Below are positions 9,681-53,200 of a DNA stretch of 64,000 bases, piece after piece. The position numbers and the translations under genes are program-made. Below the pieces are notes generated by a model. The model was not told the origin of the DNA, searched no databases, and was given only the letters and a program-made list of their open reading frames with translations. The stretch comes from Patiria pectinifera (lineage: Eukaryota > Echinodermata > Asteroidea > Valvatida > Asterinidae): NCBI GenBank assembly GCA_029964075.1, contig CM057129.1, positions 26,465,430-26,529,429 of the forward strand, in the 5' to 3' direction. Within the stretch, counting starts at the first letter, position 1, and each line of letters starts with the position of its first letter.

Positions 9681-12600
9681 CTGTGAAGAGGGACAGTTGG
9701 GTCAAGTCAAGTCAAGTCAAGTTTTAAAAAGTTAAGAATATGGAGAGGAACACCAAGCCATAGAATGTAACCCTCCAGCACATAATCACTTGGACCAATT
9801 TTGGAAAACTAGGACTTTTGGTTTATTGGAAAGAACATTGACAAAACGTCCCGATGATGTAAAACATGGCAATTGGACAAAATCTGACAGAGTCATTTAT
9901 TATTTTTGGTTCCCAAGTTTCATCAATATGCTCTACATTATAGGTTGTATCTCAAAATAGAGCCCTGCAATTTCCAACTGACTTTGTGCTAGAGCATATA
10001 TTAGATACAGCTCTAACTCTGTACTGACACATGTTGTGGTTGAGTGTAAGGCTTAACAAGCACGCAGACAAATGGATTGAAATAACACAAAATGTTCATA
10101 AGCAATCATTTTTCAGTTCAATTCTGAATACCCTAACAACAGAGGGGGCTGTTCAACTACACTACAATACAGTGAGTTTGGCCATTTTGGTAAACAAGCA
10201 TGAACTATGAAGTATCTGTTCTGCTTGTGCCTCTCACAAACTTTTCCAAACATTTGGAACAGCTAACCATTGCCCTGAATAAGTCCAGACAGGACACTAT
10301 ACATGGTGCACGGATGTACTGTATTCCCATAAATTCTTGCAGGTTTTTGAGGTCAACTTGCACAGTCTGTGGCCATCACTTAGTTGAATAGCTAGCCAAA
10401 TGCTTCCGTTATTAGTGGGCGCTCAGCGAACCCCAATTCCCTAAACTTCACTTCATATGTGCAGTTAGTAATTTAGTACTGTAATCCAACGTAAAGGGTG
10501 GAGGCTTAAAGATGCTTTCCCTTGTGCTGTTTTTGAGTTTCAACTGGAAAAAAAAAGTTTTTTTTTAATATCTTTTTTTCTAGCAATTCAAAAAATTATT
10601 CACTTTTGAATGAGACATTGAACGAAAAAGTCCACCGACTTTTAGTCCTTTTATCAAAGGATTGCAAAAACAAAACATACAAACTAAAATTTTGTTAGCA
10701 GAAAAAAATTATTTTTGAAGAGCACAGGGCACGCATCTTCAATACAATGGGCACTTGGATTCTAGGTAGACAAATGGTTAACCCTAACCTTCCCAAACCC
10801 ATCAAAATCCATCCCCCTTTGGGGGGGGGGGGGGATTTTGGCAGACTAGCCACTATAGTAGTGCCTGAGCATGCCTGTCTGGGGCCCATGCTTAAAAGCT
10901 CTGCTTCTCAATGGGCCCCTCTGCAGTGTCTCTAAAATATCACTTTTGTTGTATTATTTGTAATTCTTTTTTGTTATGTAATTATTTCATGTCATTTATT
11001 GATTTGATACTGTGGAAAATAAATGAACCTTGAACCTTGAAGTGGTGGTCTTGTGGTGGATTTCAGCGGATTTGGTCCCGAAGCATTATGAAGCAGGGTC
11101 AGTGATGGATTTTGGCTGACTCGGTCCAGTACTTAGTAAAAGACAGTAGGGAGTTAGGGTTAATGTGGTAGTTGAGGAACCATCACAATGCATTCTTTCA
11201 AGTGCCCGATACATACCTTCGATGTAGATGTACTTCTCCACCCAATCCCTGCTGTGGTATGGAGCGTTGGCCAATGGGTAGGTATTACCAAGTCGTACGC
11301 AAATGACGTTGGTCTGGAACCTGAACTCCTCCACATAGTATGCAAAGAAGCCCCGATAAAGGTCCCAGATTGAATCGGTGTTCTTCGATTGGAATGTGAT
11401 GTAGCTTGGGAGGGGGTTGCAGGGATGGGTGTCGTACAGGAACCGAACATCGGAATGGGAATTGAAGGTGCTCTGAGGAAAAATCCGAATAAGGAGATGG
11501 CATTAGTATACAGGCATGCAACTGGGAATTTAGAAAAATAATGAGGAAACTCCAAACCACACAAGACTTTGTACAGTATTTTTCACTTTGTAATGGCATT
11601 CATGAGAAGTAGAAAACGAGGAAATCAGCGGATCCGAGGAAAAATTGCATGCCTGAGTATATGTGATGCGATCAAGCTACATGAGTCGTTTGTCGACCCT
11701 GTCAAAAACATTTTTATAACAGATTTGAAAAAAGCACAATCTCAGCTTTACTGCTGTAAAAACCGCATGCTGACGCCATCTTTAGTTCAAAAATTATGGA
11801 AGTCTGAACACCAAGAGATGTGATGAAGTAATGTGATGAAGTGGCCCTATTTTGTTCTGTATCTCCAAATAAATATTCCCGCCAAACAACTCATATAGCT
11901 TGATCGCATCACATTTGTTGAGAAGAATATCGGCATAACATAAATCTTTTGCCAAAATAGTCAGAAAAAGGCGACTTCCGCACTGACAAGTATCAAATAG
12001 TGGTTGCATTTAAATCTGGAAGTTTAAAAATTTGGTTTCAATAAGCACTTTTACGGTAATATGCATCATCTTGTTCACGGGGCAAAAAGAAAACGCGTTG
12101 CTAGACACGAGCACATTTTGGAATAATCGCATGATGACTTGGAAGTTCAAAAGTTTCCGATTGACGTGCGTGCTCAGCAACATGTATTCTTTTTGCCCCA
12201 TGAACAAGATGGCGCATATTACCATGAAAGTGCCTATTCAACTATCTGGTTTTCGATTTTGGAAACTCGATATTCGAAACCAACCTCCAAAAAATTAAAC
12301 TTGTCATTTGTTGTGTCGCAGGCTAAAGAAAACAACTGGAACATCCCCCAATTTGCCCCATAAACTCTGATTGTAACTGCATTCAATTGCTAGTGGTCTT
12401 CTTGGTATGCGAATAGCCTCTGGCCATTCGACCTGTCAGAGATTTTCCATCAATTTTTTATCCATCAGTACAGCTCACGAATGTTTTTGTAAAGGCCAAG
12501 TGGTCATGGAATCCTGCAAACTATACCCAGTCATTGGGAGGGCATTGCATGTGGCACCTCACTCGCCACTTTTTGTTGACATGGATGTGAGCTGGTTGGG

Positions 12601-50200: not shown

Positions 50201-53200
50201 TCCTGAGGTTTAATTTGGAGGGACTAAGGTTGGAAACCACCATATTTACCAACAAGAATTTGCCTCAGAAAGACCACTGTTCCACTTCACGATCAACTTC
50301 CAACATGTTGCAGTGAAAATATCCCTCCTTCATTCTTTACCACACAAATCACATACCACTAACCTGATATAGAGCCAGAGTAACACAAATTCATTTAGAA
50401 CTTTGGTAAATATAAATCCCAACATTCACAGAAAAGTCTCAATTGGCATCAGGCCTAAAAACCCATAAACAACCTGCTGAATCCTTGTTGGTTTGTGCAA
50501 AATGAATGACATTTGAGTGTATATAAATAGATGTGGGTTTCCCCAATGATGCAATCCCCCAAAAAAGAGACCCCTCTGCAGTAACCTCTTAGGGCGCAGT
50601 ATACAGTGAATCGTACCAATTTTAGAAGTTCTCTATACAATAACAGATGACTTTGAGGGGCATTTGTAAACAGTTGCTGTTTCCAGATTTGATAGTCACA
50701 TGATAGTATTTCCCTACTTTCATTTACGGAAAAAGTCAATCAATTTAATTGACCCTCAAACTTTGCACATTGGCAGTATGGCTATTCATCCTAGTGGTGC
50801 GCGTTTACAGGTAGTACTGAGACCGAGTATCCTATTGAAAAAAACACCAGGTATCGGTAAAAGAAACCCAACCCAAAAATTCAAATTCTGAAAGTTGCCT
50901 AAAGAGCGTTATTGCTTTACTGTGTAAACTTTCTCAAGCGTCGTCTGTCGCACGTTAAAATGCTCATAAACATGCAATGTGTTTTGGTTTTTCAAGTATC
51001 CCTGCTTTCATCTTGAAATTCTCCACAAATGGCATTCAAAACCTTTCTTTTTCATTGTGTGAGACGTTACTAAGTAAATAAAAAAACTGGCCTAATATTT
51101 GGGCCTTAGCAAGGCCTTCTTTAGAGGCAAATGACAGAGGAACAAGAAACAAACAAGTAAGGGACACGTACACTTAGCAAGTTGTAAAGTTGCTCAGTTT
51201 AAAAAAAAAGTAAGTTGTCAAACTCGTTACGGGTTCTCGATCCCATAATCTGGAACCTGTTCCTGATATCATCACACTATGGCACACCTCTAATGCATCC
51301 CTGAGGACTGATAGTTAACAAGAAACTTAACATAAACATTCATTTTTTGCTGTGTGCATGTCAGGTTTGGCGTGATCATCGTGGGCAACCCCAAGGTCCT
51401 GTCCCGTCACCCTCTGTGGAACCACCTCCTGACCTACTACAAGGAGCAGAAGGTGCTGGTGGAAGGCCCTCTCAACAATCTCAAGGAGAGCCTGATCCAG
51501 TTCAGCAAGCCCAGGAAGCTGGTCAACACCTCCAACCCGGTGAGAGCTCTTAAACTCTCCCCATTGTAACAGTTGAACCTTTAAAGCTGGCTCTTTTCTG
51601 TCTTATGCAACACAAGAGCAAAAGTCTGTGGGACCTTGTTGCATTGAGCCATCAACACCAGTGCGTAAACTGCCAAATCTGAGACGATGGTAGTTAGTCC
51701 CAGTAAACAGTGCCACAGTCGTTTCCAGTTGATGTTGGCAATGATGGACCTGGAGGCAGTTTGGCCTTGGAAATTTGGACCTGTTTGATGTTGTAACATT
51801 GGGCAGGCATTTCGTTTTGGCAACCCTTGCAAGTTGTATTTGGGGCAGGGGTTCAAGACCAAATATCCAGGAGGGTAAAGCCGGCCTAATGTCGACCTGC
51901 AATTTTCTGGCGCCGTGACAGAACCATCGGCATCAAGCGTACAAGACGTGCTCAGGTCACAAAACTGAGAAATTGTGTGATTATTATAGAACAAGCAGCA
52001 CCTAGACACAAACTCAAATTCAGTCGGGAAATGTTCTTTGTTGTTGCTAGGATGACTTGGGCCCAATTTCTTGGCTCTGCTAACCACAGAATTCCGCGCT
52101 TACGACCACAAATTTTGTGCTAACTGCGCTAGCAGAAACATTCTGTGCAAACCCATAGCGCAGAATCCTTAGTTACGGGATATACGCATGCGCAGAATCA
52201 AAAATAACGCGTGAAATATGCTTACCGTAAGCACATAATTTTCTGCTATAGTAAGCAGGGATTTTTCGTTAACGGTAAGCAGAACCAAGAAATTGGGCCA
52301 TGAGGGGCATCTTTAGCATTTACTGTAATTTGAGCACAGCCGTCATTAATTTGATAGCATTACTGTTGGGTCATGATTAATCTTGCCCCAAATCCATATA
52401 TGATTGTCACCTGTTTCGTAACTTTGCTAGTTTTTCTACATTTGTAACTATGCAGGGTGGTCGCTTCATGACAACAGCCATGTTCAGTGCCAAGGAGGCC
52501 ATGATACCAGGCAGCATTTACGACAGATCAGGAATGATGAACGGAGGTGAGATACAGCCATCCCTGAAAATGTAGAAAAAGTCATGTTTGGTAGATCAGA
52601 CTGGCTTGACTAGGATACGCAATAACCAGTGTGCATACTGAACTTACCCTAAAAATTATGACGATTTCTTTTGTTTTGCCTCTATTTTAAGCAAATTCTG
52701 CCTTTAAGTTGGATATATTGATATGCTTTTCTTTTCTTTGGCAACTGGTTTTGGTGTTTTTTGGGCAAAGCTTTGGACCCTGTCGCTGATAATGTTCATG
52801 CAACTTTTTCCAGGCAATCTCCAATTCAGGAGGAAAACAGCAGGCGGACTCTTATATAATAGAATCTATAAAGGAATTAAATCAGACTTCATATGCTTTG
52901 TTTCTTCCAAGTCGCCTGTGAAAATTCCTCGTCCGACTTTGCCCTGAACCCTAACTCCCTAGTATAATTTACTAGGAACCATACCCATCCTGGCAAATTC
53001 CAACACCATTTGGGAAACTGCACACACATATTTTTGACTTTGATTCTGGAGGTGTGCCAACCCAATGTAAAAGACTGTCAGTTTAGGGGTACTGTACCCA
53101 TCCTGACAGATTCCAACAAAACATGCCGTTGGGGTTTGATGGGTTGGGGGAGATTAGGGTGAATTCACTACTTATTGTAGCTGCTACAAGGAACATTGAC

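What the first reader, a model, noticed from the sequence alone, without database searches (positions are those of the whole stretch)
10778..53163. Family of elements with telomere-like ends that is better explained as piggyBac-type MITEs with minisatellite cores
At least seven blocks (10778-11163, 12893-13455, 21488-22094, 22637-23058, 30772-31357, 48143-48355, 52945-53163) begin CCCTAAC-like and end GTTAGGG-like. Four have TTAA on both sides, one has TGAA on both sides. TTAA plus CCCTAAC reads as telomere repeat, but matching 4-bp flanks point to TTAA-target transposition. The cores are degenerate G-rich tandem units of two kinds (GGAGGATT type and TTGGAGTTTGGCAG type), so the ends are conserved while the cores differ. 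I know of no described family of this form.
Basis: partly seen in the sequence, partly recalled or inferred. Interest (0 to 1): 0.72.

Follow-up and report, generated by a model that had tools for sequence, protein, structure and literature searches.

The report
Jumping genes with phased docking sites
The telomere-looking blocks are small piggyBac-type jumping genes, full-length relatives with the same ends sit elsewhere in this genome, and their G-rich cores look like evenly spaced docking sites for the enzyme that moves them.

Summary
TTAACCCTAAC (one mismatch allowed) occurs 11 times in the window against 1.3 expected. Genome-wide, exact end pairs number 35 (172-202 bp) and 485 (203-263 bp), with none in the reversed control. 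The genome carries the predicted autonomous elements: 3.5-4.1 kb piggyBacs with open frames of about 800 codons, CCCTAAC tips and TTAA flanks, grouping together in a transposase tree (92/92). Exact single-TTAA empty sites were found for the family of block 22637-23058.

The cores are not minisatellites. They are about 24-bp sites set 43 bp apart at the left end, more loosely at the right, with unlike spacers; autonomous ends carry them too. piggyBat's left end has three transposase-bound sites 44 bp apart (PMC11707139). Site sequence differs between families, yet sites at both ends match within an element (p = 1e-4). I read the arrays as transposase-binding sites (inferred): shared tips, family-specific lock. 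The protein-site distance correlation is inconclusive (p = 0.09). A new variant of a known kind.

The parts
10778..11163 (+). MITE, ATCCATC/GGATTTTGG site type, left end first; TTAA both sides; sites near 10793, 10827, 11052, 11101
   Evidence: clusters with three genome MITEs L078, L090, L091; no autonomous partner among loci examined
12893..13455 (+). Degraded member, GGAGGATT type; tips CCCTGAC/GTCAGGG, no TTAA; right border blurred by a 181-bp tandem duplication 13156-13519
   Evidence: 68.5% to MITE M409 (L055) over 305 bp and 75.8% to M398 (L044) over 207 bp
21488..22094 (+). Probable deletion derivative of an L013/L020-like autonomous piggyBac, GGAGGATT type; TTAA left only
   Evidence: 72% over 247 bp to the left end of L020/L013, 68-73% to the right end; sites from left at 14 (inverted), 45, 88, 131, 175, 223
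22637..23058 (-). MITE of the M409 family (GGAGGATT type), left end at 23058; TTAA both sides
   Evidence: 86% over 301 bp to M409 copy L055, whose target has exact empty sites in other copies of the host repeat
30772..31357 (+). MITE, TTGGAGTTTGGCAG type; TTAA both sides; left sites 14 (inverted), 46, 89, 133; right sites 38, 88, 131
   Evidence: part of the core 79% over 160 bp to DNA between a piggyBac fragment (by eye) and the L015 frame
48143..48355 (+). Short MITE of the CCAACA type; TTAA both sides
   Evidence: 74% over its whole length to genome MITE L004
52945..53163 (-). Short MITE of the CCAACA type, left end at 53163; TGAA both sides (off-target insertion or two changes)
   Evidence: 71% over 224 bp to L003, 86% over 91 bp to L001
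51620..51876 (.). Degraded eighth member, GCA type, tips lost
   Evidence: 73% over 100 bp to L079 (E 2.5e-10), further piece at 51620-51664 (E 0.035), 85% over 27 bp to the L012 left end (E 0.006)
21501..21733 (+). Example left-end array: six ~24-bp sites at element positions 14, 45, 88, 131, 175, 223
   Evidence: autocorrelation at lag 43 z = 4.1
31204..31320 (+). Example right-end array in 30772-31357: sites at 38, 88, 131 from the right tip

Best explanation
The blocks are non-autonomous members (MITEs) of one piggyBac lineage whose tips are CCCTAAC. A transposase made by a full-length relative cuts the element out of a TTAA site and inserts it at another, so each copy sits between two TTAAs. 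The G-rich cores are what is left of the element's two recognition regions. Each is an asymmetric array of about 24-bp sites: left end at about 14 (inverted) and 45, then every 43 bp; right end most often near 38, 88 and 131 (positions count TTAA as 1-4). Shown here: the autonomous elements, the shared tips, the shared arrays, TTAA duplication with empty sites, the phasing, and the match between sites at the two ends of one element. Inferred: that the transposase binds the arrays, probably through its C-terminal cysteine-rich domain, and that the site sequence decides which transposase can move which MITE.
For: Transposases: Pfam PF13843 matches 110 places in the genome. Of 30 loci and 8 further regions read, both CCCTAAC ends were seen for 4 elements (L012, L013, L020, L016 with L035) and one end for 6 (L014, L015, L019, L022, L034, L070). 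Frames of L012, L016 and L020 hold the DDE domain over about 800 codons; the zinc finger is over the Pfam cut-off in 2 of 3. Nearest solved structures to L012: piggyBat 9C0F (E 2.5e-24) and piggyBac 6X67 (E 5.9e-24). The 7 CCCTAAC rows group on one side of a branch, 92/92, in 91% of 200 bootstrap trees. Mobility: L016, L019 and L022 share 99-99.7% of 300 bp at the right end but have unlike DNA (by eye) after the TTAA. Empty sites: joined flanks of L055 match across the junction in 27 of 42 rows; of 4 loci read, L064 (97%) and L065 (95%) are exact with one TTAA. Family link: 9 of 35 short MITEs and 3 of 7 window blocks match an autonomous element at E 1e-5, most of them best to one with plainly the same site type (L088-L012, L079-L015, L087/L102/L103/L104-L016, W21488/W22637-L013/L020). 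Phasing: lag 43 is the top lag in four of five left ends; combined z 7.8 over 4 families, next lag 2.3; right ends combine to z 3.7 at lag 43. Sites 0.58-0.87 alike, spacers 0.20-0.49 (four left ends). Known parallels: piggyBat left-end motifs at 11, 55, 99, with the three sites bound independently (PMC11707139); piggyBac's 19-bp CRD sites lie 3 bp inside the left TIR and 31 bp inside the right (PMC8151067).
Against: 26 of 35 short MITEs match no autonomous element read here; this includes the commonest type (CCAACA: 20 of 35, plus two window blocks) and the 10778 type. L066 and L067 lack 12 bp at the junction; repeat A gave no empty site in 71 rows, with 40 of 2894 candidates scored. The empty sites are in other copies of a repeat, not in other individuals. 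Protein and site distance correlate only weakly (Mantel r 0.41, p 0.089, six families). On their own, only L013 and 21488 (one family) pass the shuffle limit at lag 43 among left ends; L016 has lag 43 fourth (z 1.8). Right-end spacing is looser: L070 sites at 46, 95, 156, L015 at 36, 79, 107, 167, L016 at 36, 62, 124 and on. The site/spacer comparison uses sites picked by the same motif search. 92/92 is below the tree tool's 95/80 star. Lone one-mismatch ends also occur near other piggyBacs (L010, L017, L071). Binding was not and cannot be tested here.
Confidence: 0.86

Rival explanations
1. The cores are ordinary degenerate minisatellites that grew by slippage inside the MITEs and have no role in transposition.
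For: Units can be lost between repeats: copy L054 lacks a stretch bounded by unit copies (seen by eye). Tandem duplication occurs in block 12893.
Against: Slippage would copy spacers with units, yet spacers are near chance in most arrays while sites are alike. The first sites lie at similar distances from the tips in families with different sites, and autonomous ends have the same arrays.
Confidence: 0.08
2. The arrays are bound by a host protein (silencing or regulatory), not by the transposase.
For: Nothing here shows which protein binds. A host factor could also favour phased sites.
Against: Site sequence switches between element families within one genome and matches within an element; a host factor would favour one sequence. 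The layout resembles the transposase sites of piggyBat and piggyBac.
Confidence: 0.1
3. Telomere repeat relics or telomere-healed breaks.
For: CCCTAAC/GTTAGGG tips read like telomere repeat.
Against: No (CCCTAA)2 in the window. Ends are paired inverted, with 485 exact pairs of 203-263 bp against 0 in the control, flanked by TTAA, and shared with transposase-coding elements.
Confidence: 0.01
4. Another TTAA-duplicating superfamily such as Kolobok moves these MITEs.
For: Kolobok elements also duplicate TTAA (recalled). The most common MITE type has no partner yet.
Against: MITEs of other types share tips and arrays with piggyBac-coding elements, and the types compared share one end layout. Kolobok was not searched for here.
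Confidence: 0.03

Closest known systems
piggyBat (Myotis lucifugus) left end, PMC11707139 (passages and section 7 read)
   Same: piggyBac superfamily; three bound sites with motifs at 11, 55, 99 (44-bp period); nearest solved transposase to L012
   Different: in the section read, piggyBat has the full repeat on the left end only and three sites; here up to six on the left and several on the right, with a different site sequence in each family
piggyBac (Trichoplusia ni), PMC8151067 (passages read)
   Same: TTAA; CCCT tips (recalled); asymmetric sites near the tip on the left and farther in on the right; DDE domain plus CRD
   Different: one 19-bp site next to each TIR in the description read; here longer arrays, ~24-bp sites, and proteins of about 800 rather than 594 residues (6X67 chain)
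CMITE of Acropora, PMC2872659 (parts 1-2 of 4 read)
   Same: TTAA MITEs tied to piggyBac, in a coral
   Different: opposite pattern: CMITEs keep the core and vary the tips; these keep the tips and vary the core
Animal piggyBac clades surveyed in PMC10813416 (passages read)
   Same: TTAA, DDD transposase
   Different: the passages list tip motifs CACTA, CCCTC, CCCTT and CCCAT, and 'ccctaa' does not occur in the main text; MITEs were left out of that survey

Membership tests
piggyBac superfamily | TTAA target duplication | tested here: met
   TTAA on both sides in 4 of 7 window blocks; exact empty sites in 2 of 4 loci read, L064 and L065
piggyBac superfamily | Tips beginning CC[C/T]T (PMC2872659) | tested here: met
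   CCCTAAC
piggyBac superfamily | Autonomous element with DDE_Tnp_1_7 transposase and the same ends | tested here: met
   partner shown for 9 of 35 short MITEs
piggyBac superfamily | C-terminal cysteine-rich zinc finger | tested here: met
   zf-Tnp_2 over cut-off in L012 and L020; not reported for L016, whose tail looks C-rich by eye
piggyBac superfamily | Asymmetric subterminal sites, nearer the tip on the left than on the right | tested here: met
   14 and 45 on the left, about 35-40 on most right ends
piggyBac superfamily | Mobilised by that transposase | not testable with these tools
   needs an excision assay
MITE | Short, non-coding, many copies, same ends as an autonomous element | tested here: met
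   35 and 485 exact pairs; tips shared; coding potential of the MITEs was not scored
Minisatellite | Head-to-tail array in which the whole period repeats | tested here: not met
   no such array of either unit by TRF; spacers 0.20-0.49 alike against sites 0.58-0.87
CMITE | Core conserved across families, tips vary | tested here: not met
   tips conserved, cores vary
Telomere repeat | Tandem CCCTAA | tested here: not met
   no (CCCTAA)2 in the window
Kolobok | Kolobok transposase | not tested
   not searched

The most novel reading that the evidence does not exclude
The CCCTAAC tips are a universal cleavage signal, while the phased arrays are a lock that can be recoded. In a change of family, nearly all sites of an element switch sequence together. 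In several families one triplet (TGC, CCT or ACT) recurs at spacing 7 and 10 inside each site, as if the same reading head contacts DNA three times. The arrays would then split one piggyBac lineage into co-resident systems that do not cross-mobilise.
Probability: 0.4. Interest if true: 0.68.

Novelty: new variant of a known kind. Interest (0 to 1): 0.52.

Why it matters
How a transposase and its many binding sites change specificity together is an open question. Here one genome holds several sister piggyBac families with the same tips, a similar site layout and different site sequences, several with an open transposase frame. That makes the switch testable family by family. It also gives natural variants of the interior sites that were found to restrict piggyBat (PMC11707139).

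Tried and rejected
Repeat A empty site: joined flanks matched only half by half in 71 rows, so no empty site. Mantel test of transposase against site distance: r 0.41, p 0.089, not significant. Triplet modules at spacing 7/10: 4 of 6 families (L013 and L070 are close kin); 500 shuffles never above 2. Suggestive only: L014 and L015 do not show them exactly.

Literature: six searches. Terms piggyBac/MITE/TTAA/CCCTAAC (15 of 27 papers listed), subterminal repeats (27), sea star (50), tandem repeats/echinoderm (52), Patiria/Asterias (55, 8 of 17 listed) and the string TTAACCCTAAC (56; five papers, by title and abstract start none on transposons). By titles and abstract starts, and the texts read, I saw no family of this form. 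One paper with both piggyBac and CCCTAAC (PMC9942806, a ciliate) was seen in the listing only. Repbase was not searchable. Read: PMC2872659 parts 1-2 of 4; PMC11707139 passages and section 7; PMC8151067 and PMC10813416 passages. Structure prediction was not run, because its rule does not name loci from the genome search.
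Full report
What was checked. The window is a 64-kb piece of contig C1 in a 613.5-Mb genome of 1020 contigs. It is a eukaryote by size and gene content; the species is not known to me. All seven blocks are present at the stated coordinates. The end sequence TTAACCCTAAC, one mismatch allowed, occurs 11 times on both strands against 1.32 expected; none of 100 shuffles reached 11. In the genome, exact pairs TTAACCCTAAC...GTTAGGGTTAA number 35 at 172-202 bp and 485 at 203-263 bp (484 on the reverse count); the reversed pattern gives 0 in both. 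Among the first 100 single ends listed, 38 neighbours within 1 kb face each other as an element should, and none the other way. A caution: 20 of 20 fetched copies from the start of C1, mostly of a ~398-bp class, lie in two larger repeats, so the 12149 single ends are not 12149 insertions. The 35 short MITEs are better: only one pair (L090/L091) shares flanks.

Autonomous partners. The piggyBac DDE model matches 110 places. I read 30 loci and 8 more regions. L012 (4048 bp), L013 (3463), L020 (3519) and L016 (4142) have CCCTAAC tips with TTAA at both ends; six more (L014, L015, L019, L022, L034, L070) show one such end. Classic piggyBacs with CCCTTTG or CTCTTTC tips occur too (L005, L006, L017, L024, L025, L028), and those placed in the tree (L005, L017, L028) lie elsewhere. 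The CCCTAAC rows form one group (92/92, 91% of 200 bootstrap trees), beside three loci (L018, L026, L068) for which no pair of such ends was seen (21 rows chosen by me). L012, L016 and L020 encode about 800 residues with the DDE domain; the zinc finger passes the Pfam cut-off in L012 and L020. The three catalytic aspartate motifs are readable in L012 and align with piggyBac (residue roles recalled). Copies L016, L019 and L022 are 99-99.7% alike over 300 bp at the right end and have unlike DNA, by eye, after the TTAA, which fits recent movement.

Empty sites. Copies L051, L055 and L056 of a 409-bp MITE sit at one place in repeat B. The two flanks of L055, joined over one TTAA, match across the junction in 27 of 42 rows. 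Four were read: L064 (97%) and L065 (95%) carry the uninterrupted site with a single TTAA; L066 and L067 lack 12 bp there. These are other copies of the repeat, not other individuals; precise excision could also leave such a site. Block 22637-23058 belongs to this MITE family (86% over 301 bp). For repeat A no row crossed the junction.

What the cores are. A motif search in the ends of autonomous elements and MITEs finds about 24-bp sites at recurring places (positions count TTAA as 1-4). Left end of L013 and L020: 14 (inverted), 45, 88, 131, 175, 218. Block 21488: 14, 45, 88, 131, 175, 223. Block 30772: 14, 46, 89, 133. L012: 11, 53, 98, 141, 185. L016: 12, 40, 89, 132. Right ends: 38, 88, 134 in L013; 38, 89, 131 in L014; 38, 88, 131 in 30772; 35, 76 and further sites in both directions in L012; looser in L015 (36, 79, 107, 167), L016 and L070 (46, 95, 156). 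An unsupervised autocorrelation gives lag 43 as the top lag in L012, L013, 30772 and 21488 and as fourth in L016; combined over four families z = 7.8, the next lag 2.3. Right ends combine to z = 3.7 at lag 43, with lag 49 next (2.7). On their own, only L013 and 21488 exceed the shuffle limit at lag 43 among left ends. Sites within an array are 0.58-0.87 alike, spacers 0.20-0.49 (four left ends; sites were picked for likeness, so this gap is somewhat inflated). So these are phased sites, not a minisatellite.

Tips constant, sites variable. Site consensus: L012 CCCTGCTAAATGCAACAGAATGCA, L015 GCCTGCCAGACGCAGCAAAATGCA, L013 ACCTGAATCCTGCAAATTCCTCCA, L070 TCCTCAATCCTCCAAAATCCTCCA, L014 TACCCAATCACACAAACTCAAACA, L016 TACTCAGTACTACAAAATACTA. 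9 of 35 short MITEs match an autonomous element at E 1e-5, eight of them best to one with plainly the same kind of site (L080 is a weaker case, to L020); 26 match none of those read. With windows fixed at left 14-37, left 45-68 and right 38-61 (+/- 3), sites in one element are 0.657 alike, against 0.560 +/- 0.016 when the three positions are dealt among nine families; none of 10,000 deals reached it. The window positions came from one search, which included some of these elements. The tree puts L012 with L015, both with TGC-type sites, and L070 with L013 and L020, with CCT-type sites, but the Mantel test is not significant (p 0.089). Triplets repeated at spacing 7 and 10 occur in four of six families.

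How it most likely works. In piggyBac the CRD binds 19-bp subterminal sites set 3 bp inside the left and 31 bp inside the right TIR (PMC8151067 passages). In piggyBat the left end has motifs at 11, 55 and 99, and three oligonucleotides with one site each are bound (PMC11707139). Here the layout is of the same kind, with more sites and on both ends. I infer that transposase dimers bind these sites and that MITEs persist because they keep the tips and the first sites of each end. Whether the inner sites help or, as in piggyBat, restrict activity is open.

Filing. TTAA duplication, CC[C/T]T tips, DDE transposase with the same ends, zinc finger and asymmetric sites were tested and met, so these are piggyBac-superfamily MITEs; for the types without a partner read here the filing rests on tips, TTAA and layout. 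No family of this form was seen in six literature searches (listings by title and abstract start, four papers read in part). Repbase could not be searched, so a deposited consensus may exist. T. ni piggyBac itself begins CCCTAG (recalled).

Verdict. What is new is the phased, family-specific array on shared tips, with autonomous elements of several families at hand.

Noticed in passing
L018 (C1:14899576), L026 (C9:2880427), L068 (C7:9972841): Group beside the CCCTAAC transposases with long open frames and no pair of CCCTAAC ends in the DNA read (one lone one-mismatch end in L039, upstream of L018). In L018 and L026 catalytic aspartate motifs look lost by eye: may be domesticated piggyBac genes.
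   Followed up: partly
L034 (C20:27984368-27987979), around locus 633-636: Two CCCTAAC elements abut and share one TTAA; C20:27.8-28.8 Mb holds many piggyBac matches, with one element apparently inserted in another (L014/L015).
   Followed up: partly
window 52945-53163: TGAA instead of TTAA on both sides: off-target insertion or two changes.
   Followed up: no
L052 (C1:922848-923865): A 718-bp copy of the ~398-bp MITE carries another insert with GGGCGGATCC...GGATCCGCCC ends.
   Followed up: no
C1:0.03-3.1 Mb, repeat A (L040-L050 and others): A larger repeat carrying a MITE at one fixed place has many copies on C1 and on small contigs; its flank has short tandem copies with TTAA at the junction.
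   Followed up: partly
window 36089-36199: Exon matching UPF1 (regulator of nonsense transcripts 1) in the PDB, E 7e-9.
   Followed up: partly
window 45625-46038: Array of about 38 copies of an 11-bp unit AGTCCATCACA, a true minisatellite.
   Followed up: no
window 40860-41252 and 41782-42207: Two open frames on the minus strand with almost the same sequence, a duplicated segment.
   Followed up: no
contig C420:9071-19585: Many piggyBac DDE matches in one small contig.
   Followed up: no
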